A stretch of DNA of 64,000 bases, taken from contig JABAKD010000027.1 in the NCBI GenBank assembly GCA_012845835.1, forward strand, positions 12,818,487 to 12,882,486, written 5' to 3'. The notes beneath the pieces are model-generated. The model made no database searches. It saw only the letters and a list, made by a program, of their open reading frames with translations, and had not been told where the DNA came from. The position numbers and the translations under genes are program-made. Positions 3,612 through 62,200 of this stretch are shown here, piece by piece. The stretch comes from Undaria pinnatifida (lineage: Eukaryota > Sar > Phaeophyceae > Laminariales > Alariaceae). Numbering within the stretch: the stretch's first letter is position 1; every line of letters starts with the position of its first letter.

Positions 3612-5355
3612 ACATCATTCTTCACATAACCGATATATTTCAACAGGCTGAAGCCTGGACAACAATATCCTTTTATATTAGGTTTTGACTTATAAAAAAT
3701 ACTGTAAACGTACCAACGATGTGTTACGCAGCTTGAAAAGATCAGTATCGACCGTAAATATGTTGAACTCACAGCTGACGTTGTTAGAATAATTTAAGAA
3801 AGTATCAACGATCGCCACGTCTTCCCGGACTATCTGGCAGGGTGCAGTACAGCTACCACGTCTCTGAAAATTGCGGGGGATCGTTCCCCATGAAGGGTAT
3901 GCAACTCTATCAAGAACCAGTAACGTAAGCGACATGTCTCCTCGTGAAAAACCCACAGAAAAAAGAAAAGATAATTGCTGCCCTCGTGATGGTGTGCGCT
4001 TCGGTCGTGAGTCTCCCATGTGCCATCCTGCTGCCGTTCTCCATGGCCGCCTCATCGCCTTAGCCCACTCAGCTCGCTCCTTCACACGCTCTCGTTCCTA
4101 GTCATTTCCAGTGGTTACCCCTTCTCCCCCGTCCCAAAAACAAAATGCTCCTCGCAGCTTGTGGTCCTGATCTGAAAACGCAATATTGTTCAGGGAGAGT
4201 CCGATCTGTCTCGTCCCCGCCCGTCAACGCTCAGTCTCCGTCCTCCTCCGTCGTCGAATACAGCCTCATGACGCCGCAGCTTCCTCTGCAAACCTAGACT
4301 GCCGTAGTTTGGCTCGTGGTAGCGCCTACCTCCGCGCACCGGCGGTGTCCCGGTTGTGCGTTGCTGCTAGACCGCTGCTGCCTGAAAAATTCGTGGATGT
4401 CCATGCCTGACGCACCACGTACGACCCAACTCAACCGCCACGACAAAGCCACGAGGACACACGCAGCAGGAATAACGTATATCTCCTTCAGGGTAAGTCC
4501 GGCATTACTACCGCCAGAAAGACTTACCCCACTCGCGACAAGCCTGACTTACCCCACTCGCGACAAGCCTGATAGGGCATGCCTCATGACATGCCTTGCC
4601 GAGACATCGAGGGGAACGGAAAGTGGAAGGCGTCGATCGTAAGATCAGCACCGACCGCATTCTGCACCCAGAACCTGTCAACCGACGAAAAAAAACGCAC
4701 TAGACTACGTATGATACAACCCCGGACGGAAATGTCAGGGCCGTTTGGTTATTCGTATCAATACACCAAAATGGTCCCCGCAGCTCCGTACAGAGTGGTA
4801 GTCTGGTCTAAAAAACAAAGCAGTTCCGTACAGAGTGGTACTCCGGTCTAAGAAAGAAAAACACTGATTTTTCTCTGCAACAGAGGGACCGCATTGGAGT
4901 GCGACGGTCAGAGCCAACACCATCCTCGGGGGTGACGTATGCAACATCAGGCACATCTGTTACCATCACGCAACGTAAGAACAAAACATGGGGCGGCAAG
5001 CAGGGCATGGGCGCAGACAAGGGCAGAGGAGACACCACCTACCTACAGCGGTGTAACATGAAATATAGCACCCCTTGGTGGAATTTCCAAGCTGGATTTC
5101 TCGACAAGGAGGGGGGTGCAAACATCGAGTGATGTGTCTGGGGAATTATCTCGATGACATCTTCCTAAAGCCGGCATTTGCGTCGTTGATGGCAAGGTCT
5201 CCATGAGAATTTCCCAAAGCCTCCATTCCTATCGGAAGACCGCCCCTTAGGTTCGTAGAGTTTTTTGTCCCTGAAAATCGTCCCAGAGTGTGGGATACCT
5301 TGCGGGTTACCAACACCACACGCAGCTGGAGACGACAAGCACAAGTCCTCGCACC
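3612..5355. other. Gene-free stretch with small repeats
   Basis: No gene was found. It holds a diverged copy of the short MSxD..LTA repeat core at about 3708-3785, a 26-bp tandem duplication (ACTTACCCCACTCGCGACAA at about 4524 and 4550), and a 30-bp tandem pair around TCCGTACAGAGTGGTA (about 4785 and 4827). The rest shows nothing recognisable. Confidence 0.5.
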
Positions 5356-5363
5356 AAAATCAC

Positions 5364-6462
5364 CAGGGCCTTCCCCGCGATTTTTCCCGCGGGATCGTAC
5401 GGGATTCGGGATTATCCAGTGGTTTCCTGCAAAATGCGAGATTCCGCATCCCGTGGTCCCGTGCAAAATGTAAAATGCGAAATCCCGTATCCCGCTTAAA
5501 ATGGGAAATCCCGTATCCCCTGGTCCCGGGAAAAAGGCGAAATCCCGTTCCCGCATAAGTGCGTCCCGCGCAAATACCCAAAAGCCCGTTCCCGCCCAAA
5601 CAAATCCCGCGATATTGTTGAAATCCCGCATTCCATGAATAGAAGGAGGAATCTCGACGTTTGTCAAGCTCGTCCTCCCGCGCAGAAGGACAGACTAAAC
5701 CCCAGGAAGCGCCAAGCCACCGGTTCAATTCTGTCAGATCGCAAGTAGAATTTATTTTTTCATCTTTTTCGAAAACATTTGTACCCAATCCTAGAGCGAG
5801 TCCCCCTCGCTCCCCAGAACAACACCGCAAAACACCAAAGAAATCCTTTTCTTTTGTGTTTAAAGAGCCGAGAGAGGTCTGAGCGCGGAGCAGACGACAC
5901 ACATACACGGCCGTGACCGACATAGAAGAACCCTAACGAGGCTGCTGCTAGCGAGGTAGCAACGCCTGATGCCAGCGAAGCAGCAGCGCGCGCTGTCGGC
6001 CAAGGGTCCATGAGTGTCGGGCCTTCAGCATCTGATGGTCTTCCTGTGGCCCCACCTGCTGGCTCGGCTGCTGCAGGAATACATCTTGGCATGCTATCAA
6101 GCTCCAAGACGTTGCTGTCGTCAAACATCCCGTCGGGTCCCGTCGTGGCTGCAACCCGCCCGGGGAGTCCTGCAGTGGCTGGATTCCGTACATAAAATCC
6201 CGTTGAGTCCCGTCGTGGCTGCATCCCGTTGAGTTAATTTTTGTTACGTCCCGTCGTGGCTACATCCCGTCCCGGGGAACACCGTCGGAGCCGGATGCCG
6301 TACCAAAAAAAACAGTCCGTTGGTTTCCGGATCCCGCACAAACAAAATATTTCAGTCCCGTGGTTGCCGGATCCCGCACAAAAAATACCGTTGAACTCCC
6401 GCGGTAACTTAATCTCGCGGGATTTTGTCCCGAGGTCAAAACTGGTCCCGGGGAAGGCCCTG
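5364..6462. mobile_element. hAT-like non-autonomous DNA transposon with CCCGT-rich arrays
   Basis: The termini are inverted: the left end begins CAGGGCCTTCCCCGCG and the right end is CCGGGGAAGGCCCTG. Perfect 8-bp direct repeats AAAATCAC flank it (5356-5363 and 6463-6470). A CAGGG terminus with an 8-bp target duplication is the hAT signature. Both ends are filled with degenerate tandem units around AAATCCCGTATCCCG (left, about 5390-5640) and CATCCCGTCGTGGCTGC (right, about 6120-6440). No transposase ORF is present, so it must have been mobilised in trans. The 1.1-kb length is normal for a deletion derivative. Confidence 0.88.
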
Positions 6463-6769
6463 AAAATCACGACCACCATGCAATACATTGCACGTTAACC
6501 GTTTTCACGAATTCTCAGCATCTAATATCTGAAAAAGGGACTCAAATCGCCTACACATGCGTCAGGTCGTCGGACTGCCAGGGAGTCTGATCACGAAACA
6601 AAAAAACAAGAACCTCTTCTGCGGCGTGCTTGCTCCGGCAGACAAACAACTTAAAACGGAAGCCGCTGCACCACCAACGAAAACAAGAGCCGCAGCAGCA
6701 CGGCATCCCCACCCGCCCCGCCACAAGAAACATCAAATCATGCAACCAAAGCAGCCATGATAAATATTT

Positions 6770-6935
6770 GTCTGCGCTTCCTGATTGATCGGACCCCGTA
6801 AGCCAACAAAAACCGTCGACGAGTGTCCTCGATCGAAGCCTGTCTGCACCTGATTGGACCACGAAAGCCAATCAAAATCATCGACGTCACGGCGCTTCCT
6901 TATCTGACCACTGAAGCCAATCAAAATTCTCGACG
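6770..6935. repeat. Three degenerate about 62-bp tandem units with CCAAT-type inverted motifs
   Basis: Units contain CTGATTGGACCACGAAAGCC followed by AATCAAAA and end in TCGACG (near 6820, 6885, 6932). Each unit can pair TGATTGG with CCAATCA. They lie downstream of the 3' end of the DUF4281 gene. Function is unknown. Confidence 0.6.
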
Positions 6936-7255: not shown

Positions 7256-7518
7256 CTGGCGAAGGAGATGCGGGGGGAGGCGGGGGCGGGGGCGTGTACC
7301 CAATGTTTTCTTGCGTTAGTCACTTCACCATCGACCACGCATCCCTTCGAGACGGAGCACCGTTTCTACTCCTAATAGAGGCACCTCCAAACGTGTGGGT
7401 GCTCATTACGTATATTCCATACAGTACGTACGCACTTGGTGCCTGTCTTATCTGGGAGGGGGGGACGGGCGAAAGAAAAAAAGGAACCTATAATACGACC
7501 GGTGTATCATATCACGTA

Positions 7519-7590
7519 TAGCTTGCAAAGTTGAGTAGCGACTTATCGGAAGAAATCACAGCTGACGCCGTACTGTTTATATTAAACACG
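7519..7590 (+). repeat. Diverged MSxD..LTA core repeat
   Basis: AGCTTGCAAAGTTGAG is followed by a frame reading LSSDLSEEITADAV. This is the most diverged member of the family described in the findings. It aligns to the other copies through GCTTGCAAAG and CACAGCTGAC. Confidence 0.5.
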
Positions 7591-8941
7591 AGAGCGGGTG
7601 GGGGAGCGAGGGTACGGTCGAGGAAGAGGGGCGGGGAGTCTCCCTCTATAATGGGGACGGCAAGCAAAGAAAACCAATATGTTTTTTACATTGTTTTGTT
7701 ATACTCGACAAGTTTCCCCTTCGAAGGAAGGGTGACGCAAGAGGCCGATGCTTTGCATTTTGCACCCCCGCGCGTTCGCTCGCATCCTAACGGTTAAGCA
7801 TGCAGCTACACTGCAATTTAATGGATCCGGGTGTATCGGAAATGAAGGTACCGCTGTGTAGGGACGGCCCAGATATAACTTATGTCGATGCTGTTGTAGC
7901 CTACCTGGTACTACTAGTGGGTTCTGCGCATGTATAAGTTTACCGCAGCTAGAGTAGCTGCAACTTTAACGTACCCGGCGCATAAGCATTCGGGTGCAGC
8001 TTCAAACTGTTATTCGTTCATGTGCTCAGCACATTTTGATGCACGTACAACAGTCCAGTATTTACTACTAATAACGCGTAACCAGCAAAAAAGCATCTAC
8101 CCCCAGGCACATAGCACATTATGAAGGCCCGCCAGCAGCCAACAAAGCTATAAAAGACCCGCCAGCAGGCACGGAAGCCTTACTGGCCAGCCGCATTCAA
8201 TTGATAATTAGTTCAACACGCATGATTCTAAATGTATTTTTCCTACCGGCCTTGCATAGTCTGCGGCAACATTCTGCGACAACGTACTGCGACAGCCTAC
8301 TGCAACAACCAACTACAACAACGGACGGCAGCATCAAATATTTATCAAGGGCCCCCTTCGGAGCCCTTAAATGAAGTGTTCTTACGGGAATTGATTTGCG
8401 TATTTTTTGGCGGTTTTTGTTACGGTTCGCCGAGCCCTGGAGGCATCCCCTTGCTAGCATACACAAGCACCGAAATTGCCATTGGGCGTAGTTGGAGCTC
8501 GACCCGCAGCACTGCTCGAGCCCAAATTCTCTCCTCTCAGTAGGTGCTTGATATGCTACTGTACTACCATAGGTATCTGGTATGACATGTACTTGGTACC
8601 CATTTACAGCAGAAGCAGCGCACTCAGGTTAACGTACGAGTATAGTACTACACATGTGCTTGGAGCCCACACCTGCTGCGATGTAATGCGTACACCACAC
8701 TCGTGCATACCTAGTGCCATGTAGCAAGGTAAATGACATGGTATAACTCTACAGCAGTACCAGGTGCTGATATAGTCTTGCAGGAGTATGCACGAGTACG
8801 AACATATCACACCTGGTACCTCTCGTCATTTTTCCCTATACTATAATCCAGTCTATTCTTATAACTTCATAAGCAACAGCGCTGCGGTAACAGTCTGCAT
8901 CGGAACTGCGAGGTGAACTACTATTTCAGTGTAACAAATAA

Positions 8942-9006
8942 GCGATTGCAAAGATGAGTATCGACCCTAAATTCGCCGAACTCACAGCTGACGTCGTTAG
9001 AACAAT
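8942..9006 (+). repeat. MSxD..LTA core repeat, second subfamily
   Basis: The sequence reads MSIDPKFAELTADVVRTIS-stop beginning at ATG 8954. A sister copy at about 3708-3785 reads SIDRKYVELTADVVRII-stop. It shares the GATTGCAAAGATGAG lead-in and CTCACAGCTGACGT core with family C ends. It could be a transposon terminus or a tiny coding exon. Confidence 0.6.
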
Positions 9007-10471
9007 TTCATAAAATAAGCGAACGAACCCATTTCAACTCCTAAAATTACTCTAGTCTAACTCCAAGTGTTTCGTCCCCATGTCGGGACTGCGGTGCAAA
9101 AAGGGTCAAGTGATGTCCGAAACTTGCCTAAACACGTCCTACGGAAAGGATATTTTTCTCCAATGCTAGGGCTCGGATCATCTATCTCTCGCCAGTTTAG
9201 AAATACCAGGTCACAGGCCATCTTTCTTTGGTTTGAACATTTCGAAGCGGCATATTTATTGCGTCGAAAAAAGCCTCTTTCACAAGTCAAACTCCTCCAG
9301 ACTCGGCAAACATGGTCGAAATTGGTAAAATGGCCATCTCTCGCGCTGCTGACACGTGTTTTCAACACAGAAAGTCAACGACATGGCCAAGCACTAGCAG
9401 GCGAACGCATCTGGACCTCTAGCGGAACCGTTAGTGGCATGTCATATGCATGCAGCAGTGTGGGTACCCGGAGCCTCGTATGTAAGCACCCAGTATCACA
9501 CTTTGTACCGATTTCATGTCACCATGCAAATATTTCTGCAGGGGGCTTCCTTCGCAGATCCAACGCCCCCTACACCTCCTAGAGGCCATCAAGAACAGCG
9601 TATACGATGGTCGGGAGATGGTCTGAGATCTATGTGGAGTGCTAGCGTGGTTCTCCTGGTCGGGACTAGCGTGGAACGGGCGACGAGGCCCTGAGCGATG
9701 TGTCATCGACAATTTATCGCACTACAACCTAAACAAACGAGCGCAGAGCGCGTACGCGCGGGCATGCCGATGTGATGTGTCTGCTTTTCTTGCCATACTT
9801 GGTTGGGCTTCGAGGCATTCGACGTTGCAGAGTCGTCGTGCAGGACGCCACCCCCAACAAAATCTGAGGCTCTCCCTTGTCTGCAGGCTGTCCTAGCAGG
9901 GGTTTCCACAACGCTAAATTCAGTATGTTTGCCATTCTGCTGCATTAAACGTTTTTTTGCTTTGACCGAACGGGTCCCTTAAGCAGTGTAAAAACACACA
10001 TACAATTTCAGATCGGAACTTTTCATCGAAACTCGTTTTTTTTTCTACACTTCGAAACTCGTATTTGCAAACATTGTGTGATACCCGTCTCTCTGTCCAC
10101 TGTCGTCTGGATCCAGCGTCGATATAGCCGTGTACCCAGGTGATCTGGTCGATCGCGCGTGCATCTTACCGGTCTACAACGCACTGCAAAAACAGCGCAG
10201 TACTGCGCCAACGTACTGTGACTTGCTGCGACAATCTACCGCAACAACCCTACCGCGGCCAAACACTTGAACATCCCCCCCCCTACAAATAACGAGACAC
10301 TTTTAGCTGTCATATCGAGGATCCAGTAGTCACCATTGATACCCGCGTCTTGTAACTTCTCCGCTTCTAGTCGTTGCGATGCGCAGGGAAGCCCCGATTC
10401 GCGCCTTAATCTTGGCAAAATATCAAGTCATACATCGATTGCGCCGAGTGTCCGGTCGCTCGACAACTTAC

Positions 10472-10643: not shown

Positions 10644-10784
10644 CTGCCGATCAATCGAAGCGTTCATCGGGAAGGTTTCGCACGTCGGACAGATCAGATT
10701 CCCTCGTATCGATGATCTAGAATATATGTCTTCCAGGCAAACACATTCTTGGTCCACACGAAATCTGCACGGTGTATATTATAA

Positions 10785-10870
10785 AAATTAAAAACACACT
10801 CCAGCCGTAAGATCGAAGATTTCGTCGAAACTCATCTTTGAAAGCTGAGTGTAACACTCCGATCGCGCGT
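10785..10870 (-). repeat. Family C terminal repeat, partial
   Basis: The minus strand reads MSFDEIFDLTAGVCF, starting near 10833. Its lead-in (GATCGGAGTGTTACACTCAG) is a variant of the usual family C flank. The G-run-rich body of family C is absent. Confidence 0.7.
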
Positions 10871-11029
10871 CTTGCTGGATTACTAGTGGTAATTCCGAAG
10901 TATGCCAGCGCCGGCCGGTATAGCGGAGAACAACAAAATGGCCTTGTACCAGCAATGTACGAAAAACAAAATAGCATGGCCGTCTCCCACAGGCACGAAA
11001 ACACCCAACCACGAATTATGACACACGTT

Positions 11030-12559: not shown

Positions 12560-12872
12560 CGGTACGTGATTGAGTTTTGAAAAAAATAATAAAATACAAT
12601 TTGAGAAGGGCTGAAAAGCACTGATTCGGGCATTCGAGCCCCCCGCTCAGCCGTCCGCAGAGAAGAATATAAAGTTTGTGTAGGAAGCAAAACAAATGGA
12701 GGCCTCTCAGGAAATCGATATTATTATTTATTTATTTATTCATTTATTTATTTTTGTAAGTAGGTCTATAGGACTATCCACTAGACCACAGAGTCACTGT
12801 GACTTTGTGGTCTAGTGGAGAGACTGTCTGCTCTGAGCCTGGTGTGCGTGGGTTCGAATCCCGTTGTCATCG
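12560..12872 (+). repeat. tRNA-derived SINE, family A, copy with body
   Basis: The body near 12600-12760 (GGCATTCGAGCCCC, CTCAGGAAATCGATAT) is followed by a tRNA-like unit at about 12800-12872. That unit has an A-box-like TGGTCTAGTGG and B-box GGGTTCGAATCCC. The segment 12779-12820 is an inverted repeat (CCACTAGACCACA / TGTGGTCTAGTGG) that includes the A box. The anticodon arm does not fold properly, so this is a SINE or pseudo-tRNA and not a functional tRNA. Confidence 0.75.
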
Positions 12873-12934
12873 AAAAAAGTATATATTGCTGAAAAAAGAT
12901 GGTGAGAATCGCTGAAAAGAACACCACAGTCACT

Positions 12935-13038
12935 GTGACTTTGTGGTCTAGTATTATAGGCACTGACTTTGTGTGTCTAGAAGATAGAGCGTCCGCTAAT
13001 GAGCCTGGTGTTCGTTGGTTCGAATCCGGGTGTCATCG
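12935..13038 (+). repeat. tRNA-like SINE unit, family A
   Basis: A second tRNA-like unit with TGGTCTAG, a duplicated TGACTTTGTG segment, and B box GGTTCGAATCCGG. A poly(A)/GATCATCAC stretch and a body remnant (GGCGAGGAGAATGTCTTAAA, about 13083) follow. Confidence 0.65.
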
Positions 13039-13189
13039 GGAAAAAAAAATGATCATCACAAAAAAAAATTGATTCAGACGTCCGGCGAGGAGAATGTCTT
13101 AAAGTTAGCGTGGAAAACGGAGGCCTCATAAAAACAGCATTGATAGTATACTCATCAAAAAAGGAGACGATGAGAAGCGCTGAGAAGAA

Positions 13190-13280
13190 CACCACAGAGT
13201 TCACTGTGACTGTGTGGTCTAGTAGATAGACTGTCCGCTTATGAGCCTGGTCTTCGTTGGTTCGAATCCGAGTGTAAATA
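13190..13280 (+). repeat. tRNA-like SINE unit, family A
   Basis: Third unit in the cluster: TGTGGTCTAGTAGATAGACT then GGTTCGAATCCGAGTGT. It lies about 110 bases from the DUF4281 exon at 13388. Confidence 0.65.
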
Positions 13281-28309: not shown

Positions 28310-29112
28310 TCGTACGAGTACATATTTCCCCCCCCCGCTCCCTCTTGTTCAAACGCCCCACCTAAAAACGAAATCTGCCAGAGTAATAAACACTACTATA
28401 CCACGCAGTTGATATCATCTCATTATATTTCTAGCCATCCATGCTGTAGCTCCAATTGTCCCCTCCCCCCCCTCCCCACCGCCCCCTCCTTCCCCACCGC
28501 CCGCACCATCGCCTAGACCTAGCACCACGCGTATAGCAAACCCCTACATCTATGCGACATATAGCTGTTGGACCCCCCCCCCCCCCCTCACCGCTTCAAA
28601 CACTGCGCCTTCTCACTGGCTGTACGACTTACAGGATATACATCATAAACTGGTGCATTCCTTCCACACCCGTCAGATTTGTTCCCTTAAATGATGTATA
28701 GTTTCCGCGCACAGATAGATGGAGTTGCCCCGCCCGTTTTCCCCCTTCCCCCCCCCGCTCCCTCTTGTTCAAACCCAGGCCCCCACGCTCTTAAAAACTC
28801 CGCCCTCCCCTCACCGGCTATATGACTTACAGGATACACTTGATGAACTGATGATGCATTTCCTTCCACAACTGTCAGATTGTGTCCCCCGCAAAAACGG
28901 GTTTTATAGTTTCCGCGCACAGACTGACTAACATCACCCTGTTGACCCTGGTAGCTACACGGTAGTTCCAAGGGGAGTCGCCGACCTATATCCTTAATGA
29001 GGACACACACCCAGTAATACGCGCGATCGGAGTATCACACACAGCTTGCAAAAATGAGTTTCGACAAAATATTCCATCTCACAGCTGGAGTGTATTTGTA
29101 TTTTCATAATAT
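28310..29112 (+). repeat. Family C repeat, full-length copy (plus orientation)
   Basis: C-run-separated units contain GTTTCCGCGCACAGA, TTATATTTCTAGCCATCCAT and ACTTACAGGATACACTTGAT. They are followed by the conserved end GGGGAGTCGCCGACCTATAT, GATCGGAGTATCACACACAG and ATG at 29054, reading MSFDKIFHLTAGVYLYFHNI. No protein can be read through the C-rich body. Confidence 0.8.
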
Positions 29113-29114
29113 TA

Positions 29115-29190
29115 GCCGGTCGCCCCGGTGGCGCATCAGGTTATCCTCGAGCCTGGTCTAGGTCGGTTTCGTGAGTTCGAGTCCCCCCGA
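29115..29190 (+). repeat. tRNA-like sequence (SINE head or pseudo-tRNA)
   Basis: The A-box-like GGTGGCGCATCAGGTTA and B-box GTGAGTTCGAGTCCC are spaced as in a tRNA. The acceptor stem does not pair. It adjoins the family C end. Confidence 0.55.
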
Positions 29191-34789: not shown

Positions 34790-34843
<54 letters not shown>

Positions 34844-41944: not shown

Positions 41945-42180
41945 TCAAAATGTTTTGCGCGCTTCTCGCTTGTCTCGCTCAGCATCCATCCGCGTTCACA
42001 TCGAGGTGCGGAACGGATAAGGCAGGACGAGGGGCGTTACAGCCGCCCCCCGAAGACGGCGCTCGAACGATTTGACCGAAGATTCCAGTTCCGAGAATCC
42101 CATACTGAGGCCGAAACGAAAAAAAAATCCTGAACAAAACCCCCCAAAAAGAACGATCATATATATTATAAAATTAAAAT
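41945..42180. repeat. Family I repeat, copy 1
   Basis: About 235 bp shared with 47075-47320 in the same orientation: GCTTGTCTCGCTCAGCATCC, CCGCCCCCCGAAGACGGCGC, GACCGAAGATTCCAGTTCCG, then a GATCATATATAT end. Each copy borders a family C element. Confidence 0.7.
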
Positions 42181-43680
42181 ACACTCCAGCTGTGAGATCG
42201 AATATTTTGTCGAAACTCATCTTTGCAAGCTGTGTGTGATACTCCGATCGCGCGTATTACGGGTTGTGTGTCCTCATTTAAAGATATAGGTCGGCGACTC
42301 CCCTTGCAACTACAGTGTAGCAATCAGGATCAACAGGGTGATGTTAGGCAGTCTGTGCGCGGAAACTACAAAACCCGTTTCTGAGGGGGACAAAATCTGA
42401 CAGCTGTGGAAGGAAATGCATCAGTTTATCAAGTGAATCCTGTAAGTCGAATATCCGGTGAGGGGAGGGCGGAGTTTTTAAGGACGTGGGGGCCTGATTT
42501 TGATCAAAAGGGGGGCGGGAGGGGGGGAGGGGGGGGAGGGGACGGGTGGGGTAGGTCAATTTGTGCCTGGAAACCATAAATATTTCTTGTGGGGGAGGGG
42601 GGGGGGGGATGTGGCAGGGGGGGCGGGGGGCGAGGGGGGAGGGCTTTAGGTCGCATAGATGTATGGGTTTGCTATACGCGTGGTGCTAGGTCTAGGCGAT
42701 GGTGCGGGTGGTGGGGAAGGAGAGGGCGTTGGGGGCGGGGGTGGGTGGAAATTGAGCAGCGGCATGGACGGCTCTAAAACGATTACGAGGCGATATCCAG
42801 GGCGTGGAAGTGTTTATTACTCTGGCGGGTTTCGATATCAGGTAGGACGTTTAAGCAAGAGGAATCGAGGGACAAAAAAAAAAAAACGAAAGGCCTGGGG
42901 GGGGGGGTTCCAATAGGTGACATATAATATTAAAATACAATCCAGCTGCGAGATCAAGGATTTGGTCGACACTGACGTTCGCAGCATTGTGTGTGATCCT
43001 CCGATCGCGCGCATTAATCATATATAATAAAAATTGAAATACACTCCAGCTGTGAGATCGAATATTTTGTCGAAACTCATCTTTGCAAGCTGTGTGTGAT
43101 ACTCCGATCGCGCGTATTACGGGTTGTGTGTCCTCATTAAGGACATAGGTCGGCGACTCCCCTTGCAACTACAGTGTAGCTATCAGGGCCAACAGGGTGA
43201 TGTTATGTAGGGGCTTGCTATACGCGCGGTGCTGGGTCTAGGCGATCGTGCGGATGGTGGGAAAGGAGGGGGCGTTGGAGGGGGGGAGGGGGGATGAATG
43301 AAAGCTACGTCATGGATGGCTAGAAAGATAATGACGTGATATCAGTTGCTTAGAAGTGTTTGTTACTCTGGCCGATTTCGATTGTAAGAGGGGCGTTTGA
43401 ACCAACTGGGCGGGGAACAAAAGGGAAGGGGGGGGGGTGGGGAAGGGCGGAGATAAGTTGGAGCTACGGCATGGATGGGTAGATGGATAATGAGATGCTA
43501 TCAGCTGGCTGGTAGTGTTTACTACTTTGGCAGATTTTGATTTCAGGTGGGGCGTTTGAACAAGAGGGATCGGCGGGGGGGGGGGGGGGGGGGGGGGGGC
43601 GAGCATTTCAATATGTGCGCGGAAACTATAAATCCTTGAAGGGGACGAATCTGACGGTTGCAGCAAGAAGACACCCCTTT
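42173..43680 (-). repeat. Family C repeats, two or three adjoining copies (minus)
   Basis: Conserved ends read on minus: MSFDKIFDLTAGVYFNF (near 42215), VSVDQILDLAAGLYFNI (near 42975) and MSFDKIFDLTAGVYFNF (near 43078). Bodies are units of about 150 bp with GGAAACTATAAA, TGACRGYTGTGGAAGGAA, CCTGTAAGTCGAAT and long G runs (42510-42625, 43575-43602). The last run exceeds 20 G, a candidate G-quadruplex. Confidence 0.8.
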
Positions 43681-43689
43681 ATTTCACCC

Positions 43690-44999
43690 GCCTGGCAATG
43701 TTTATTTTTCTAGAAGGTTTGATGTTACATGTTGATGCAACCCAGTTCTTAGGTGTAGTAAACAACGTGTTAAAAGCTTCATAATTTGTTATTGTACATG
43801 GATCGGAATATTTCAATCGATAGGTACAATCATGTAGATACCATTATTTTCTGACATCGCTAATTATAAGAAAGATATACATATTGCCAAATACAACAGG
43901 CGAGGTTATGTGGTCATGCAATGTCACCGCCGTTGAAAACGAAAGGGAGAGATGCGAATGGTTATTGTTTTATATATATTCACAGGGGCATTCGCCGGCG
44001 TCCATGCTTCGGGTAGGGCAGGACAGCACTTCGACAAGTTAAGGTGTAGCTGTCCAATTTTTGACATTCATTGAACTTTAAAGGTAATGCCAAAACTTTA
44101 ATACGAACATGCGATTATGAAGGTCATAATTTCACAGAAGAAAAACGTCATATACAACAAAGAAGGCAAGGATAGGCGAACCACACTGCTGTTGTTAAAT
44201 GCGCCGTCACGAGTAAAAGTTGGCGTATATCAAACAAAAATACCGGAAAGAGTATTGAGAACCTGCTTCGCCTCTAGGCGAAACGAAAGAAGACTTGGCA
44301 TCAATGAAGAGACTGCACTGCTGTCCCCGTCGCATTGGAGGTTCGAAGTCGACAGGATGCGAAGTCGGTTTGCATCAAGCGTTGACATGGGGCCATGTCA
44401 GCCGTTTAGGTCTTGGAAGAAGAGTTTTGTTTATTAGCTGAAGGCTGTCCCTTTGATTGGTCTGCGTGGTCACAGGCGAGGAGGGAAACGAAGAAGAGGA
44501 GATCTATCCCTCGTTGCGGTCTAAAATAGATGCGGGGTGGCTTTGCTCGTACGGGAGGTTGGCGTAGCGCATCTTCTCTGTGTTTACCCGGGAAGGCGGG
44601 ATATGTGTATCAGCTGTCTTTGCTTCGCGGGTGCTTTCACGTTGTCGAAATCGGACGTCCTCAATAAATAATATCCGGAGTGTCTCTACCATGACCACTG
44701 CTGACAGTGCCGTGCGTATTTCCTACTTAGAGACTAACATAGTATTTACTGGTACTAGTACTCTTTCGTTTCGGACTATGCGCATAGCGGAAAAGAGGTC
44801 GATGTTTAGTATTTTTTATTTCCGACTGAAAGTCCAACTTCAGAAAAAAATAGGTGCAGACAATCTAGTATCTTATTTCAGGATGTACTACTACTGCACC
44901 AAAAATAAGTAATCTGTCAATATTTTTTGCCTAGAGAAGAATGGACACATACAAATAAAACAGTCCCGGAACAGGATATAGGGGTGCTGTGTGTGGTAG
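43690..44999. other. Gene-free stretch, nothing recognised
   Basis: Only short frames without domains occur; the longest (44117-44437, plus) has no resemblance to a known family. Near 44010 a 40-base piece (GGTAGGGCAGGACAGCACTT) matches about 29505. Confidence 0.4.
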
Positions 45000-45565: not shown

Positions 45566-45843
<278 letters not shown>

Positions 45844-47320: not shown

Positions 47321-47369
47321 ATAACATCAAATCTGCTAGAATAGTAAACAGTACTAGGCAGGTGATACA

Positions 47370-48420
47370 AAAGGATGTGTTCTTGCTACAACCGTCAGAT
47401 TTGTCCCCTTCAAGCATTTATAGTTTCCACGCACATATTGAAGTGTCCCGCCCGCCCCCCGTCCCCCGCCCCCCCCGATTTCTCTTGTTCAAACGCCCCA
47501 AATCAAAATCTGCCAGAGTAGTAAACACTACCAGCCAGCTGAAATCGCCTTATTATCTTACTAGCCATCCATGTAGCTCCAATTCATTTCCGCCCGCCCC
47601 CCCACCCCCTCCTTTTTTTTCCCCCCCGTTTCCTCTTGCTCAAACGACCCACCTAAAATCCAAATCGGCCAGAGTAATATACACTTCTACGCAACTGATA
47701 TCACGTCATTATCTTTGTAGCCATCCGTGACGTAGTTTTAATTCATCCCCCCTCCCCCCCCCCCCAACGCCCCCTCCTTCCCCACCACCTGCACGATCGC
47801 CTAGACCTAGTACCACGCGTGCACCACGCGTATAGCAAACCCCTTCATCTATGCCACCCAAAGCTATTAAAAACCCTTTTGCCCCCCCCCCCCCCACTCC
47901 CTCGAACACTCCGCCCTCTCCTCACTGGTTGTACGACTTGCAGTATATACATGATAAACTGGTGCATTCCTTCCAAAACCGTCAGATTTATCCCCTTAAA
48001 GGATTTATAGTTTCCACGCACAGATGGAGTTGCCCCGCCCATCCCCCCCCCCCCCCCGCTCCCTTTTGTTCAAACCCAGGCCCCCACGCCCTTCACAGCT
48101 CCGTCCTCCCCTCACCGGTTATACGACTTACAGGATACACTTGATGAACTGATGATGCATTCCCTTCCGCATCTGTCAGGTTTTGTCCCCCTCAGAAACG
48201 GGTTTTATAGTTTCCGCGCACAGACTGACTAACATCACCCTGTTGACCCTGATAGCTACACGGTAGTTCCAAGGGGAGTCGCCGACCTATATCCTTAAAG
48301 AGAACAGACAACCCGTAATACACGCGATCGGAGTATCACACACAGCTTGCAAAGATGAGTTTCGACAAAATCTTCGATCTCACAGCTGGAGTGTATTTTC
48401 ATTGCTATAATATATATATA
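47370..48420 (+). repeat. Family C repeat, full-length copy (plus)
   Basis: Several C-run-separated units with GTTTCCACGCACA, GCCAGAGTAGTAAACACTAC and ATGATAAACTGGTGCATTCC. They end in the conserved block with ATG 48355 reading MSFDKIFDLTAGVYFHCYNI. Confidence 0.8.
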
Positions 48421-50620: not shown

Positions 50621-50688
50621 ACTTGCGTCTGACGTGCGCATGCGTAGTGATAAGTATTACGTGTAATATATACCGGTACAGTAGGTGG

Positions 50689-51987
50689 GCCTATATAGTG
50701 CGGGTTATATAGTGCGCCCCTGCCGGTATAGTTCGGGTGAAATCGCTTGGCACAAAATTCGGGCCTATATAGTGCGCATGCCGCACAATAGGGGCACAGG
50801 TCTATATAATGCGGATTTGGACCACCTCACACCCGATATAGTGCGGGTCTGACGTCACCCCGCCTTAGATCACGGGGTCAAACTAACCACAAACCCGCAG
50901 TGCTGCGGTACAGCAGTACAGTACTACAGCTGTACAGTACCCCTACCACCCGGCGGACCCTACTGGCAACACGAACAGCAGTGTAGAGGCTCACGATGCC
51001 GTGTGCAGCAGGCGAACTCTGCCATCTTCCCCATCTGGAGAGTGAGGACGACGACGACGTCGAAGGCGTTCGCACCGAGCCACCGTCGTATGCGGAAGTT
51101 CTCCAGCACTTCGCCGCCCTGGAAAACTACGCAGAAGCGTCCGGCATCAATGAGGCCGGCCATTTGCTCCAGAGGGCACGGATGTTGATGATTGCAGAGC
51201 ATGCATCGCGGCCATCTCGCCAGACTGATGTCCGGGGGTATTTTGACACGTGAAACGATTGGCGTTGTTCGTTTTTTTTTTGGGGGGGGTGGGTGGGGCG
51301 CGGGTCTACGGAGTGCCTGACTTTCATGTGTGATGAAGTGACTCGTACGAAGTACAGTAAGTCAAAGGTTGGCGCGTTTTATTTGTTCGTGCATTAAAAC
51401 CAAGCCTAAGGGTATGCGTGGTGTTGCGTTGTTGCGGATTTTCTTGTAGCCACAAAGGTAGAGCGTACGAGAAGTACGAGTAGAGACGTATGTTTGTTGT
51501 TGTTCCAGTTTCCCGCTTTTTTTTCCTGAGAGGATGTCACCGTTTGGCACGTTTATGTTTCGTTTGCAGAGCTTGCATTTAGTAGTCAATCCATTCCTCT
51601 ACGAACTTAATAAATTTCATCTCAACCAACGATGGGACTTCGCACAAACAGACGGGTGGTGCACTCAGACGTGCGAGCGCGTCGTTATGAGCAACCACGC
51701 TGTACCCGGGTGCAGCAGGCCTATTCAACGCTGCAACAGGCTGTCCTCTTCTCACCACGTACAGATGCATGTATCGACAGCTTGTTCACCTTCGTACACC
51801 TTGCCGTTGGCTTTGTTCTGTGCTTTAAACAAGTGAAATCGCGAATAGAGCGCTAACCCGCACTATTGAGTTGATTCTAGTCGCGAATTGTGCGGGTACC
51901 CGCACTATAAAGGCCAGAAATCATATAGTGCGCGAGGTCGATATAGTGCGGGTACGGAGCCGTGTCACATACCCGCACTATATAGGC
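50689..51987. mobile_element. pogo/Tigger-like DNA transposon remnant
   Basis: Perfect 17-bp inverted ends GCCTATATAGTGCGGGT at 50689-50705 and 51971-51987, compatible with a TA target. TATAGTGCGG-type motifs recur about five times inside each end (50706, 50766, 50803, 50838; 51861-51950), as transposase-binding iterons would. The interior holds the transposase C-terminus described separately. At 1.3 kb the DDE domain is missing. Its right end is about 20 bases from the Copia-2 gag frame. Confidence 0.8.
50996..51253 (+). pseudogene. Transposase C-terminal fragment (CENP-B/Tigger-like)
   Basis: 85 codons: after an acidic EDDDDVEG stretch it reads YAEVLQHFAALENYAEAS then GINEAGHLLQRARMLMI and ends RQTDVRGYFDT. 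The sequence ALxxLxxYxExxG...LxxxxxxL...RQTxxxxYF is the usual C-terminal tail of pogo/Tigger/jerky transposases after the DDE domain. No DDE or CENP-B HTH domain is present. The assignment rests on this tail and the surrounding TIRs. Confidence 0.65.
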
Positions 51988-52006
51988 ATATAGCCACAGT
52001 GGGAGT

Positions 52007-54691: not shown

Positions 54692-55192
54692 TCAACGGTC
54701 AGCAGCGAACCGCCCGAAAGCGACACTTCATCTCGAGATGACGACGATGCGTCCTCCTCTGACGATGGAGCTCCGACCCCGGCTGCTATCCGGACTGCTG
54801 CGCGCCAACTTGGGGCGCACATGTCAGGACCGGGCGGTGGTGAAGAGATTCGGGAGAGAAGAACGAGAGCGCAGACCAGAGCGCTCAACCGGGAAGCGGC
54901 AACGGGGCTGATTAGTACGATCGGGCCCTGTGAGGGAGGCCGCATATTCCATGCGCTACTGGCGGCGCAAGACACAGGCGGTGAACCTACTCGGTTGCCG
55001 GATTACCTCCTCAAGGAGGTGGAACCGGAACCGACGTCTTACTCCGCGGCACGTTCATCAATCCACTCTGGCGTTTGGGTGGAGGCTATGCAAGCGGAAT
55101 TTGATGAACTAGAGGCCGCTGACACTTTCACTGAGATTTCCGAAGTTCCGGCGGGTAGCAATATTGTGGAATCAAAGTGGCTCTTGAAGTGA
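54692..55192 (+). CDS. Copia-2 Pol linker and start of RT
   Basis: In frame with the preceding ORF. An acidic/serine linker leads to LPDYLLKEVEPEPTSY, VWVEAMQAEFDELEAADTF and VESKWLLK, then TGA (55190-55192) where the relic at about 2262 reads Trp (WLLKWKADAHG). The change is a single TGG-to-TGA-type difference. Confidence 0.85.
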   Translation, partial: STVSSEPPESDTSSRDDDDASSSDDGAPTPAAIRTAARQLGAHMSGPGGGEEIRERRTRAQTRALNREAATGLISTIGPCEGGRIFHALLAAQDTGGEPTRLPDYLLKEVEPEPTSYSAARSSIHSGVWVEAMQAEFDELEAADTFTEISEVPAGSNIVESKWLLK

Positions 55193-56584
55193 AAGGGCGA
55201 CGAGCATGGCATGATTGATAGAGCTAAGGCGAGATTGGTAGCTAAGGGCTATAGTCAGGTAGAGGGAGTTGACTGCTTTGATACGTTTGCCCCTACTGCA
55301 TCAACCACGTCTAACCGCATCGTTGCAGCAATGGCATGCAAACTTGACTGGGACTTGAGGCACTTGGACGTTGACCAGGCCTTTATTCAGTCAGAGTTGA
55401 ATACCGAAATTTTCTCAAGATTGCCCCCTGGGTGTGGGCGGTTATCGGGTAAGGTAGTCCGACTCAACAAAGCTCTTTATGGGCTGAAGCAGAGTGGTCG
55501 CTCGTGGTATAAGCTACTGCCGTCAACCTTGGTTGAGTGTGGTTTTGAGCAGTGCTTGGTAGACCCGTGCGTCTTTCGACTGATGGTGGATGACGAGGTT
55601 GCAGCGATGGTGGTGGTCCACGTGGACGACATCAAGATCGCAGCGACCAAGGAAATTACGGAGTCAGTAGTGGCGGATCTCAATAAGAGATTCCCTACGA
55701 AACATCTTGGCGAGGTAACGTGGTACATGGGTAGCGAGTACAAGAGAAATCGTGAGAAGGGGACCTTGGAGATTTCGCAGACTCAGTTTATTCGAAATGT
55801 TGTCGAACGTTTTGGAATCACGAAAACCAGCCCCATCCCCGCTTCTCCGTCATTGGACCCCAGGCACGTGAGTGGTGAGGACCCTGCGGTGGACGCTAGA
55901 CACCGCGAAATGGTAGGGAGTCTGATGTGGATTGCGAATCAGACGAGGCCGGACATCGCCAACGCAGTACGGGCGGTTGCGAGGTTTTCACATGACCCTA
56001 AGGAGGTACATGTTAAGGCGGCTAGGAAGATAATCGAGTACCTGAGCGCTACGGCTCACTTGGGTCTGACGTTCAGGAAGGACAGTAAAGTAGAGGAAGT
56101 GCAGTTGGAATACGACTTGGAGACGTACGTGGACGCGGACTACGCCCACAAGGCCGACGATAGGCGTTCGGTCTCTGGCCTGGCTGCCGGTTGCGGGGGT
56201 ACACTTGTGCCGTGGTTTTCTAGGACGCAGAAGTGCGTCACCCTATCAACCACCGAGGCAGTGAACGTAGCCATGGCCGACGGGGTGAAGGAAGCCCTTT
56301 ACGTGAGAGGAGTGTTGGTTTTTCTGATGCCCAGTCTGGGGTCGCCGAGTATTGGAGTGTTTGAAGACAACAAAGGGGCGATAGACTTGGCCAAAAACCC
56401 ATTGAGCTCATCCAACAGTAAGCACATCGATGTACGGTACCATTTTCTGCGCGAGTTGGTGGGGACGGGAGACTTGTCGGTTAAGTATCTCCGGACGGAT
56501 GGCCAGCATGCGGACATTCTCACGAAGGCTATTGGCAAAGAGAGTTTTGAGAAACACCGAGATTTTCTGTTAGGAATACAGTAA
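55193..56584 (+). CDS. Copia-2 Pol: reverse transcriptase and RNase H
   Basis: Same frame after the TGA: AKARLVAKGYSQVEGVDCFD, DVDQAFIQSELNTEIFSRLP, LYGLKQSGRSWYKLL, catalytic VVHVDDIKIA, NQTRPDIANAVRAVARFS, then RNase H YVDADYAHKADDRRSVSG, STTEAVNVAMAD, FEDNKGAIDLAKNP and QHADILTKAIG, stop 56582. In RNase H the conserved TEAEY reads TEAVN (Glu to Val at 56261), which should abolish activity. RT itself looks intact at the residues I can identify. Confidence 0.9.
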   Translation, partial: KGDEHGMIDRAKARLVAKGYSQVEGVDCFDTFAPTASTTSNRIVAAMACKLDWDLRHLDVDQAFIQSELNTEIFSRLPPGCGRLSGKVVRLNKALYGLKQSGRSWYKLLPSTLVECGFEQCLVDPCVFRLMVDDEVAAMVVVHVDDIKIAATKEITESVVADLNKRFPTKHLGEVTWYMGSEYKRNREKGTLEISQTQFIRNVVERFGITKTSPIPASPSLDPRHVSGEDPAVDARHREMVGSLMWIANQTRPDIANAVRAVARFSHDPKEVHVKAARKIIEYLSATAHLGLTFRKDSKVEEVQLEYDLETYVDADYAHKADDRRSVSGLAAGCGGTLVPWFSRTQKCVTLSTTEAVNVAMADGVKEALYVRGVLVFLMPSLGSPSIGVFEDNKGAIDLAKNPLSSSNSKHIDVRYHFLRELVGTGDLSVKYLRTDGQHADILTKAIGKESFEKHRDFLLGIQ

Positions 56585-57867: not shown

Positions 57868-58262
57868 TCCGCTCGCCGCCAGCTACGCTCGCGCAAAGAA
57901 GAATGCAGCTAAACCATGTAAAGGGGGCAGAAAGAGGTCCATGATTTGGTGCGAACACGATTTGATTATGCATAGAGCTACTTGTGCAGAGCGAATTGCC
58001 CTGTGCTGTGTTGTGTGCTTGCTGGCGGTGTCACGTTCTGATCTGTAGTACAGGTGTAATTTGCGTGGAGGGAAAAACATGGGGACCGAGATCAAATGAA
58101 GAAAAAGCGAAAGGACGAGTGCACAAAACGTATACCTGGTACCTGGTACTGCTGTATGTTCGTAAGAAAGCACAGCGCAGCACGACACAGCACCGCAGCG
58201 CAGGGCAAGGCACGGCGCCGCATTGCACGGCACCGCACGGCGCTGAGCTGCGCTGCTGAGCT
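57868..58262 (+). repeat. Family D repeat, copy 4
   Basis: The head is shortened (TCTCCGCTCGCCGCCAGCTACGC, lacking one arm of the GC hairpin). The rest matches copies 1-3 including TACCTGGTACCTGGTACTGC. It runs directly into a family C element. The D-type tail also occurs alone at 59773-59830. Confidence 0.7.
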
Positions 58263-59770
58263 ATATTATGAAAATAAAAATGCACACCAGCTGTGAGGCC
58301 ATTTCTTATGCAGTCGGATCTGTCAGTCGAAAACGGCCTTTTTCGACTGAAGCCCCAATCGGGCTTTCTTACGCGGTCGAAAAAGGGCTTTTTCGACTCA
58401 ACTTTCTTCGACTAAGAGTTCCGACTGGCGGATCCAGTTGAAGAACTCGACATTTTCGACTGGATCCTCCAGTCGAAAAACTCAGTCGAAAAAGTTTTAC
58501 ACATGTTTTTTTAACCGATCGCATCGCTCATCCCACCACCAAACACACCCCCAAACGGCCACACGGCCACACACCCATACCAAGTACCACACTGCAGTAT
58601 CATACAAGGCGCTGACGCTGGCTTGGCTATCCCAGCTGTTGCTTCTCGCAGCAAGTCAGCGTGGCGCATTCCTAGTTTTGCTCGCCAGCAGCGTGTATCA
58701 CACGACGGCAGCAGCGCGCCGTCTCGATCCCATGCTGCCAACAACGGCTGCGGCTGCTGTGGCGTTGGCGGCTTTCGGCTGAGGGCAACTCTACGAACGT
58801 AGCTTTGGCGGCTTTCGGCTAAGCCCAAAGCCACCAACTCGTTGGGACGAGGGTTCGCCGAGCCGTTGCTCGCGGAGAAAGCGCGAAGCACAGAGCTGCC
58901 AACCGATTTCGACTGCTGTACAGCAGTACTCCTCACACCAACCACCTCTAGGAAGAGCACAAAAACTATAAAATCGACTCGACTGACGATAAGATGAAGG
59001 ACCAGAAGAATCCAGTTGAAAAAAAGTCCAGTCGAAAAGGGCCGTTTTCGACTGGCGGAATCCGACTGCATAAGAAATGGCCTGAGATCGAATATTTTGT
59101 CGAAACTCACCTTTGCAAGCTGTGTGTGATACTCCGATCGTGCGTATTACGGGTTGCGTGTCCTCATTAAGGATATAGGTCGGCGACTCCCCTTGCGACT
59201 ACAACAGTGTAGCTATCAGGGTCAGCAGGGTGATGTTAGTCAGTCTGTGCGCGGAAATTATAAAACTCGTTTCTGAGGGGGACAAAATCTGACAGCTGTG
59301 GAAGGAAATGTATCCGTTTATCAAATGAATCCTGTAAGTCGAATAACCGGTGAGGGGAGGGCGGAGTTTTTGAAGGACGTGGGGGCCTGGTTTTGATCTA
59401 AAGGGAGCGCGGGGATGGGGGGGGGGGGGGGGCGGGGGACGGGCGGGGCAGCTTAATTTGTGCCTGGAAACTATATATCCTTCAAAGGGATAAATGTGAC
59501 GGTTTTGGAAGGAATGCACCAGTTTATCATGGGGGGCGGGGGAGGGGGGGGGCGGGGCGGGCGGGGCACCTCAATCTGTGTGTGGAAACTATACATTCTT
59601 TAAAGGGGATAAATGTGACGGTATTGGAAAGAATGCACCAGTTTATCATGTATATCCTGTAAGTCGTACAACCAGTGAGTAGAGGGCGGAGTGTTCGAGG
59701 GGATGGGGGTGGGGTGAGGGGGTGGGGAGGTGGGGGGTGGGGGAGGGGGGGGTGGGGGAGGGGGGGAGGG
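58263..59770 (-). repeat. Family C repeat, split by a MITE (minus)
   Basis: The conserved end (MSFDKIFD...LTAGVHFYFHNI on minus) is interrupted after ATCTCA by the MITE at 58297-59082. Units with GGAAACTATATATCCTT and G runs follow to about 59770. Confidence 0.8.
58297..59082. mobile_element. Harbinger-like MITE, 786 bp
   Basis: Terminal inverted repeats start GGCCATTTCTTATGCAGTCG on both strands and continue imperfectly to about 43 bp. Flanking TGA at 58294-58296 and 59083-59085 is a 3-bp target duplication, proven by the uninterrupted CTGTGAGATCG in other family C copies. Subterminal TTCGACT/AGTCGAA motifs are repeated many times. No ORF with a transposase domain. The GG-terminus and 3-bp duplication suggest PIF/Harbinger; the usual TWA target is not met exactly. 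Confidence 0.85.
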
Positions 59771-60589: not shown

Positions 60590-60594
60590 GCCTG

Positions 60595-61310
60595 TACCTG
60601 GTATGTACAAACCTGGTGTAGTACGTGGTACGTACCTGGTATTGTTTTTTTTTTTCAAATCAACATCTGCGAAGCGTTGAAAAAAGCGCTGTTTCAGGCA
60701 TCCGAGCCCCCCCGCCCAGCCGTCCTGAGCGGCGGATATCTCTTTGGAAGCAAAAAAAGTGGAGGCCGATCAGGAAATCGATATTTGTATGTAGGTCTAC
60801 AGGACTATCAACTAAGCCAGAGTCACTAATTGGGACTTTGTGATTTAGTGGATAGATTGTCCGCTTCTGAGCCTGTGGCGTGCGTGGGTTCGAATCCCGG
60901 CATCATGGGGGGGGGGGGGGGATGATGCGCAGGACTGTCCACTAGACCACAGAGACTGTCCGCTTCTGATCATGTTGTGTGCGTGGGTTCGAATCCCGGT
61001 ATAATGGGGGGGGGATGATACATAGGACTATCCACTAAGCTACAGTCTCACTTTGACTTTGTGGTCTAGTGGATAGACTGTCCGCTTCTGAGCCTGGCGT
61101 GCGTGGATTCGAATCCCGGTGTCATCGGGGGAAAAAAAATGAGACTCATAAGACAAAAGCAAAAATCGTTGATAGTATACAGCAGTATAATCATAAAAAA
61201 GGAGACGGTGAGAAGAACACAAAATCATTGTGGCTTTGTGGTCTAGTAGATAGACTGTCCGCTTATGAGCCTGGTGTGCGTGGGTTCGAATCCCGGTGTC
61301 ATCGGAAAAA
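60595..61310 (+). repeat. tRNA-derived SINE cluster, family A (four tRNA-like units)
   Basis: The body (GCTGTTTCAGGCATCCGAGC, CAGGAAATCGATAT) starts near 60660. tRNA-like units lie at 60830-60906, 60930-61006, 61045-61126 and 61225-61305, each with TGGTCTAGTGGATAGACTGT (or a variant) and GTGGGTTCGAATCCCGGTGT. The unit at 61031 has the same A-box palindrome as 12779. Acceptor ends pair partly (TGAC with GTCA) but the anticodon stem does not. Confidence 0.8.
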
Positions 61311-61324
61311 AATATATATTGTAA

Positions 61325-62200
61325 AAAATGAAAATATACTCCAGCTGTGAGATCGAAGATTTTGTCGAAACTCATCTTTGCAAGCTGTGTGTGATACTCC
61401 GATCACGCGTATTACGGGTTGTGTGTCCTCATTGAGGATATAGGTCGGCGACTCCCCTTGCAACTACAACAGTGTAGCTAAAGAAGGTGATGTTAGTCAG
61501 TTTGTGCGCGGAAACTATTAAACCCGTTTCTGAGGGGGACCAAATCTGACAGCTGTGGAAGGAAATGTATCCGTTTATCAAGTGAATCCTGTAAGTCGAA
61601 TAACCGGTGAAGGGAGGGCGGAGTTTTGAAGGACGTGGGGGCCTGGTTTTGATAAAAAAGGAGCGGGGTTGGAGGGGGGGGGGAGGGGGGTTGGAGACAA
61701 AAAAAAAAATGCACCAGTTTATCATGGGGGGGGGGGGGGGGGGGGCAGCTCAAACTGTGCGTGGAAACTATACATTCTTTCAAGGGGATAAATGTGACGG
61801 TTTTGGAAAGAATGCATCAGTTTATCATGTATATCCTGGGGTAAGTCGTACAATCAGTGAGTAGAGGGAGGGCGGAGTGTTCGAGGGGGTGGGGGGTGAG
61901 GGCGGGGCGGGGGGGGGGGGGGGGGGAGGGCTTTAGGTGGCATAGACGTAGGGGTTTGTTATACGTGTGATGCTAGATCTAGACGATGGTGCGGGTGGTG
62001 GGGAAGGAGGGGGCGTTCGGGGCGGGGGGGGGGGGGGGGGGGAAGGAGCGGCATGGATTACTCTAGAAAGATAACGAGGTGATATCTAGTGCGGGAAGTG
62101 TCTATAATCTGGCGGATTTCGATATTAGGTGGGGCGTTTGAGCAAGGGAGAGCGAGAAGGGGGGGGCGGGGGGGGGGTTTAAAGAAGATATACACAAGGT
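61325..62200 (-). repeat. Family C repeat (minus)
   Basis: The conserved end reads MSFDKIFDLTAGVYFHF on minus (ATG near 61373). At least four G-run-ended units follow (61660-61745, 61880-61935, 62020-62045, 62160-62180). Confidence 0.8.

What the first reader, a model, noticed from the sequence alone, without database searches (positions are those of the whole stretch)
3708..61400. Dispersed core repeat that keeps a short reading frame, MS(F/I)Dxx(F/K)xxLTAxV
At least eleven places on both strands (about 3710, 7520, 8945, 10833, 29054, 42215, 42975, 43078, 48355, 58290/59090, 61373) carry a roughly 60-base core. The best copies encode MSFDKIFDLTAGVYF; a second subfamily encodes MSIDPKFAELTADVV. 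The lead-in GCTTGCAAAG before the ATG is also shared. Outside the core the flanks differ, with family C body in some and nothing recognisable in others, so the core is conserved beyond its host repeat. It may be a portable mini-exon or start codon donor, or simply a transposase-binding terminus that happens to be open.
Basis: partly seen in the sequence, partly recalled or inferred. Interest (0 to 1): 0.7.

Follow-up and report, generated by a model that had tools for sequence, protein, structure and literature searches.

The report
Shared tail of jumping kelp repeats
The repeated 60-base core appears to be the common tail end of several families of short copy-and-paste genetic elements in a brown seaweed genome, present in many thousands of places, and its apparent reading frame looks like a by-product, not a gene.

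Summary
In detail: 13 profile hits, i.e. 12 copies because one is split, at all 11 listed places plus one more. The contig length equals the scaffold N50 of the published Undaria pinnatifida assembly. The genome holds 17,465 exact copies of an 18-base core pattern, none of the reversed control. The core is the fixed 3' end of non-LTR-type retroposons: upstream homology stops anywhere from about 0 to 1006 bases before it, and short target duplications are enriched over permuted pairs. Three unrelated 5' bodies share this 3' end, and a fourth core type has its own lead-in. The frame is not maintained: in larger samples changes spread about evenly over codon positions, and a third core type is shifted by +1, with TTG for ATG in 5 of 6 copies. 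Most likely the core is an RNA-level tag through which a LINE reverse transcriptase copies several non-autonomous families, as described for Ectocarpus RTE-X derivatives. The partner LINE was not found: seven loci of two LINE families do not end in the core. New member of a known kind; low to moderate interest.

The parts
3721..3801 (+). solo core, MSID-type, 81 bp, flanked by duplications 3710-3720 and 3802-3812 (GTA(C/T)CAACGAT, 1 mismatch)
7510..7594 (+). old, unassigned core (TTG in place of ATG); no duplication found
8946..9012 (+). solo core, MSID-type, 67 bp, flanked by exact 10-bp duplications AAATAAGCGA at 8936-8945 and 9013-9022
9970..10083 (-). degenerate MSFD-type core with internal duplication (not in the finding)
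10771..10873 (-). solo core, MSFD-type, no C body; no duplication found
28328..29119 (+). C-bodied element, 5' truncated, ending in the core (29034-29119)
42157..42867 (-). C-bodied element ending in the core (42157-42240)
42912..42997 (-). solo diverged MSFD-type core directly behind the next element
43018..43727 (-). C-bodied element ending in the core (43018-43100); the body may extend further upstream
47322..48415 (+). C-bodied element with the longest upstream homology, core 48335-48415, (TA)n behind it
58256..58296 (-). 3' half of a core split by the nested element
58297..59082 (.). nested terminal-inverted-repeat element (ends GGCC, 3-bp TGA/TCA duplication) that splits the core
   Evidence: for the inverted repeats; duplication letters
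59083..59747 (-). C body and 5' half of the split core
61314..62177 (-). C-bodied element ending in the core (61314-61395)

Best explanation
The core is the conserved 3'-terminal domain (about 65-100 bases plus a short A/T-rich tail) of several non-autonomous non-LTR retroposon families in Undaria pinnatifida. Inferred mechanism: RNA of each family ends in this domain; the reverse transcriptase of a LINE recognises it, starts target-primed reverse transcription there, and often stops early. That would leave copies that all share the 3' end, are cut at any point on the 5' side, and lie between short duplications of the target. Families with unrelated 5' bodies (C with the MSFD-type core, A and B with the MSID-type core, and a D-type core with its own lead-in) keep the same 3' end because it is their ticket to that enzyme. 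Shown: fixed 3' end, 5' truncation, enriched duplications, sharing between bodies, no maintained frame in the larger samples. Inferred: the enzyme, recognition at RNA level, transcription.
For: Upstream homology anchored at the core ends at a near-continuum of distances up to 1006 bases over the 102 copies examined (103 anchored copies, two of which fell together). Duplications: 8946-9012 lies between exact 10-bp repeats and 3721-3801 between 11-bp repeats with 1 mismatch, and neither has terminal inverted repeats. Over 38 copies with an estimated 5' boundary, 18 score 7 or more and 9 score 8 or more, against permuted means of 5.5 and 2.4; none of 300 permutations reached either count. Abundance: 17,465 exact 18-base matches, 0 in the reversed control. 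Bodies A and B meet the same core at CGCAGCTTGCAAAG; BLAST at E 0.01 of sample A, B and C bodies finds no match between the three. A body: in 14 of 15 pairs of the 6 fetched A loci mutual homology begins at 1473-1514 (the search query began at 1501) and all 6 have a core hit, giving an element of about 260-290 bp; the other pair extends to about 425; tblastn with four LINE reverse transcriptase domains finds none in those loci. Published parallel: Ectocarpus RTEX-N1_Ec32, about 600 bp, over 6000 copies, 3' end shared with autonomous RTE-X elements (PMC12477816, passages); LINE 3'-end recognition and SINE/LINE tails (PMC3747384, passages).
Against: No LINE carrying the core at its own 3' end was found: 7 downstream loci of two LINE families, chosen from 150 listed RVT_1 matches, end in (CA)n or (CAA)n. 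One of them, L076, has a weak core hit (E 0.077) in opposite orientation beyond its tail, which I read as a neighbouring copy. Duplications are clear in only part of the copies (9 of 38 at score 8 or more), the excess is weaker at higher scores, and the best-scoring one (L061-622) may be similarity of two tails; only 2 of the 13 window hits gave a duplication above the shuffles (43101- matched the neighbouring core). A stem-loop is drawable in all three core types, but there is no covariation on 10 window copies and folding is mostly no better than shuffles; only the MSID-type inner hairpin stands out (z -3.6, single-base shuffles). The tail is not a clean simple repeat. No RNA data.
Confidence: 0.86

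Rival explanations
1. Portable mini-exon or start-codon donor: the core is kept because its ATG and short frame are used when inserted upstream of genes.
For: The frame is open in most copies. In the 8 window copies of the MSFD type, distinct changes fall 9:1:9 over codon positions (second-position deficit P 0.002, synonymous excess P 0.086). All 42 MSFD-type copies together show a small synonymous excess (15 against 10.1 expected, P 0.017), and in the MSID type the two other frames gain more new stops (6 and 5) than this frame (1). The one pair of MSID-type window copies differs 0:4:4.
Against: With more copies the codon pattern flattens: 15:14:21 (42 MSFD-type copies), 13:11:13 (the 22 of these not chosen by pattern; synonymous 9 against 7.6, P 0.32) and 22:18:24 (41 MSID-type copies; synonymous 17 against 15.1, P 0.29). 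Between types the changes are 4:5:5, 4:6:7 and 8:7:7; for the first two, 7 of 8 and 9 of 10 differing codons change the residue. ATG is absent from 20 of 75 copies outside the exact ATG-pattern sample. The D type is shifted by +1 relative to the MSID type and has TTG for ATG in 5 of 6 copies. The 30 bases before the core, outside the selected pattern, are at least as conserved as the core itself.
Confidence: 0.03
2. The core descends from the last codons of an autonomous LINE's open reading frame; the frame was real in the ancestor and is a relic in the short families.
For: The MSID-type frame ends in TAA within a few bases of the 3' end in both window copies, and in the C-bodied copy at 48335 the frame runs 12 codons upstream of the ATG to a TAA.
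Against: No LINE with such an end was found in the 7 loci examined; the frame is not kept between core types.
Confidence: 0.15
3. Terminus of a DNA transposon that binds its transposase.
For: Short conserved end shared by otherwise different elements, on both strands.
Against: Copies share only one end; the other end varies nearly continuously; the two duplication-flanked solo copies have no terminal inverted repeats; duplications vary in length. No genome-wide search for an inverted partner end was made.
Confidence: 0.04

Closest known systems
RTEX-N1_Ec32 and other LINE-dependent non-autonomous families of Ectocarpus (PMC12477816, passages seen)
   Same: Brown alga; short, very abundant non-autonomous element; 3' end shared with other elements; its 5' region is of unknown origin according to the paper.
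   Different: Its sequence is not held here, so homology with this core is untested; there autonomous RTE-X partners are known, here none is; here three bodies and a fourth core type share one 3' end.
SINEs with a LINE-derived 3' tail, 'stringent' 3'-end recognition (PMC3747384, passages seen)
   Same: Conserved 3'-terminal domain of tens to about 100 bases shared between elements whose 5' parts differ.
   Different: No tRNA, 5S or 7SL head and no partner LINE shown here; the tail is a short A/T-rich stretch.
Green-algal RTEX LINEs with (CA)n, (CAA)n and other tails (PMC3747384, table passage)
   Same: The two abundant LINE families examined in this genome also end in (CA)n and (CAA)n.
   Different: Those two families do not end in the core, so they are not shown to be its partner, and their clade was not tested here.

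Membership tests
Non-LTR retroposon (copied by target-primed reverse transcription) | fixed 3' end with variable 5' truncation | tested here: met
   extents about 0 to 1006 bases
Non-LTR retroposon (copied by target-primed reverse transcription) | short target-site duplications | tested here: met
   clear in a minority of copies but enriched over 300 permutations
Non-LTR retroposon (copied by target-primed reverse transcription) | 3' tail of A or a simple repeat | tested here: inconclusive
   A/T-rich TATAAT(A) or TATAAAATA ends, no clean repeat
SINE with LINE-derived tail | 3' end shared with a partner LINE | tested here: inconclusive
   7 loci of 2 LINE families, of 150 listed matches, do not end in the core; other LINE families not examined
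SINE with LINE-derived tail | RNA polymerase III head (A and B boxes) | not tested
   no systematic box search was made on the A, B, C or D bodies
SINE with LINE-derived tail | stem-loop in the 3' domain supported by covariation | tested here: inconclusive
   0 compensatory pairs on 10 window copies; MSID-type hairpin z -3.6
RTEX-N1_Ec32 (Ectocarpus) | sequence homology | not testable with these tools
   the Ectocarpus repeat library is not held
Protein-coding mini-exon | synonymous excess, kept frame, kept ATG | tested here: not met
   small-sample signals in its favour did not hold

The most novel reading that the evidence does not exclude
The core is the recognition tag of a retrotransposition machinery not yet described in kelps (an unseen, rare or lost LINE clade, distinct from the two abundant (CA)n- and (CAA)n-tailed LINE families), and this one tag has been taken up by at least three unrelated bodies to give tens of thousands of insertions.
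Probability: 0.25. Interest if true: 0.5.

Novelty: new member of a known kind. Interest (0 to 1): 0.3.

Why it matters
The published Undaria assembly lists 36.1% of the genome as unknown repeats and only 0.003% as SINE (PMC7058681, passages). A 3' domain with more than 17,000 exact pattern matches, shared by several bodies, would turn part of that fraction into named, LINE-dependent families and gives a clear handle for finding the enzyme that moves them. It is also a warning that short open frames in repeat termini can look like coding cores.

Tried and rejected
Coding or mini-exon reading: tested on window copies and on 83 MSFD- or MSID-type copies from the window and genome loci; rejected. 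The window-only signal of 9:1:9 favoured coding and did not hold up with more copies.

Peptide or motif elsewhere: no match in phages or plasmids; the motif YTNGAYYTNACNGCNGGNGTNTAYTTY: none in viral contigs, two in prokaryote contigs that lack the MSFD context; by my own estimate a few are expected by chance. Core and body DNA patterns: none in viral contigs. These collections hold viruses and prokaryotes, so they say little about other algae. No Pfam match to the doubled peptide, no Rfam match in the window at gathering score. Paper searches for the peptide letters gave 0 papers and 1 irrelevant paper. Searches for brown-algal or Undaria LINE and SINE papers (20 listed of 26, 212 and 494) gave PMC12477816 as the only listed paper with a curated brown-algal repeat library that I opened.

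Conserved RNA hairpin: drawable, not shown. Partner LINE: not found in 7 loci nor upstream of six A-body loci.

First genome pattern mis-specified: GCTTGCAAAGNNATG (67 matches against 26 reversed) has two bases too many; its 8 loci L003-L010 stayed in the sample.

Dropped rows: one search anchored 103 of 123 unique hits (20 dropped for want of both anchors); one search left 9 unassigned and removed 3 of 45 MSFD-type and 2 of 43 MSID-type copies with many differences; one search used 38 copies with boundaries that I set by hand; one search used 17 of 18 named C-bodied copies. In one search the row 59131n was joined wrongly and not used; one search used the joined halves, both of which it checked to be in the window. 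In one search one A copy matched one D copy, in a far-upstream stretch that looks like the tail of the (CAA)n LINE family, not the body.
Full report
What is there. A profile of the core finds 13 hits in the window (12 copies) at E 1.6e-11 or better; controls give nothing better than 3.4. All 11 listed places are confirmed, with one extra degenerate copy. The double entry 58290/59090 is one copy split by a later inverted-repeat element with perfect 24-base ends and a 3-bp duplication.

Where it is from. The window lies in a 511,146,479-base genome on a contig of 16,510,065 bases. That number is exactly the scaffold N50 printed for the Undaria pinnatifida assembly, whose total is 511,280,173 bases with GC 50.14% (PMC7058681, passages). 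I take the window to be Undaria pinnatifida. Two copia elements in the window were identified by Pfam.

How common. GCAAAGATGAGTWTCGAC occurs 8,668 + 8,797 = 17,465 times in the genome and 0 times in the reversed control. In the window 5 of 12 copies match it exactly, so the true number may be two to three times larger; that factor is a guess from one window.

Anatomy. In the window the two MSID-type copies are only 67 and 81 bases long between their duplications, with no terminal inverted repeats. The 30 first listed genome places of the pattern (L041-L070) show the same 3' end, with upstream sequence replaced at different points by unrelated DNA. BLAST of upstream regions anchored at the core, 102 copies, gives extents running nearly continuously up to 1006 bases. 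For 38 copies, duplications at the estimated boundary are enriched: 18 against a permuted mean of 5.5 at score 7, 9 against 2.4 at score 8, with 0 of 300 permutations as high; at scores 9 and 10 the excess is weaker (4 against 1.2, P 0.023; 3 against 0.7, P 0.017). In the first scan of the 13 window hits only the two MSID-type copies gave duplications above the shuffles, the second of them marginally (0 and 5% of 60 shuffles as good); 43101- matched its neighbouring core instead.

Shared by different bodies. MSFD-type cores carry the C body where a body is recognisable; MSID-type cores carry body A or body B, which have nothing in common upstream of CGCAGCTTGCAAAG, and BLAST at E 0.01 of sample bodies finds no match between A, B and C. 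The D type has another lead-in, but its body is poorly sampled. Six A-body loci are mutually similar from about position 1473-1514 to the core in 14 of 15 pairs, with the other pair extending further up. That makes A an element of about 260-290 bp, with no LINE reverse transcriptase in the roughly 1.5 kb fetched upstream.

The frame. In the 8 MSFD-type window copies changes are 9:1:9 by codon position, which by itself would favour coding, and the pair of MSID-type window copies differs 0:4:4. In larger samples this flattens: 15:14:21 (42 MSFD-type copies), 13:11:13 (the 22 of these not chosen by pattern) and 22:18:24 (41 MSID-type copies, mostly chosen as best hits and so biased to low divergence). 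One of three in-frame synonymous tests is nominally significant (P 0.017) and not so in the unselected subset (P 0.32) or the MSID type (P 0.29). Out-of-frame controls have fewer synonymous changes than expected (P 0.82 to 0.99), and in the MSID type more new stops (6 and 5 against 1), so a weak trace of a past frame is not excluded. Between types changes are 4:5:5, 4:6:7 and 8:7:7, mostly non-synonymous where counted. Spacers of 18, 21 and 22 bases show that the D type is out of frame relative to the MSID type, with TTG for ATG in 5 of 6 copies; a 29-base stretch of it, not covering the ATG, occurs 348 times (163 + 185; 0 in control). ATG is present in 55 of 75 copies outside the exact ATG-pattern sample, a set that still includes best hits to an ATG-bearing query and loci from the first pattern. 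Among 17 C-bodied copies, 11 of them pattern-selected, the 30 bases before the core start diverge by 0.048, against 0.086-0.131 for the windows 30 to 180 bases upstream; the first 30 core bases (0.056) are lowered by selection on that stretch, and the next 30 diverge by 0.138. Conservation thus does not follow the frame.

RNA structure. A hairpin with an outer CAGCT/AGCTG stem can be drawn in all three core types. On 10 window copies no pair shows a compensatory change; 80.7% of cells pair, far above slid versions, but the structure was drawn from these sequences. Folding energies are mostly ordinary; only the MSID-type hairpin stands out (z -3.6). I treat it as possible, not shown.

The partner. 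RVT_1 has 3,526 first-look candidates in the genome; 150 were scored and listed, many in open frames of about 1250-1267 codons. Downstream sequence of seven (L071-L077) falls into two families ending in (CA)n and (CAA)n, and neither ends in the core; one locus (L076) has a weak core hit in opposite orientation beyond the LINE tail (E 0.077), probably a neighbouring copy. Other families were not examined, so the partner is unknown, not absent.

Reading. Fixed 3' end, 5' truncation, target duplications and a 3' domain shared by unrelated bodies are what is expected of non-autonomous retroposons copied by a LINE that recognises their 3' end (PMC3747384, passages). Ectocarpus has such families dependent on RTE-X (PMC12477816, passages). 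Transcription, the enzyme and recognition at RNA level are inferred. Whether the core descends from a LINE's coding end is open.

Limits.

Noticed in passing
58297-59082: Nested element with perfect 24-base inverted repeats and a 3-bp TGA duplication inside a core copy; looks like a non-autonomous Harbinger-type element (type recalled from end sequence and duplication).
   Followed up: partly
33139-39147 and 51986-56581 (+): Two copia-type LTR retrotransposon coding regions with RVT_2 matches; integrase matches are over the cut-off in the first and below it in the second.
   Followed up: no
60801-61312, 12768-13275, 29116-29190: Repeats resembling tRNA-derived heads (GGTTCGAATCCCGG-like box), several copies in a row in the first two, two of the three places abutting core tails; ARAGORN reports no tRNA in the window. 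Box motifs are recalled.
   Followed up: no
41957-42170 and 47085-47305: An 84% identical repeat ends in GATCATATAT and meets a C element once at its 3' end and once at its 5' end, both in a TA tract; suggests a preference for TA-rich targets.
   Followed up: partly
2480-3215: Large inverted repeat with GGGACCGCCGAG-type units around an A/T-rich centre, seen by eye.
   Followed up: no
L071-L077; window 50095-50673, 48425-48496, 45517-45587: Two abundant LINE families in the genome with (CA)n and (CAA)n tails; pieces similar to the (CAA)n family lie in the window.
   Followed up: partly
58514-59146 (-): The nested insertion extends the core's frame into a 211-codon open frame, a possible source of a false gene call.
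   Followed up: no
45383-46104: Long trinucleotide repeat tract that translates as runs of one residue in several frames.
   Followed up: no
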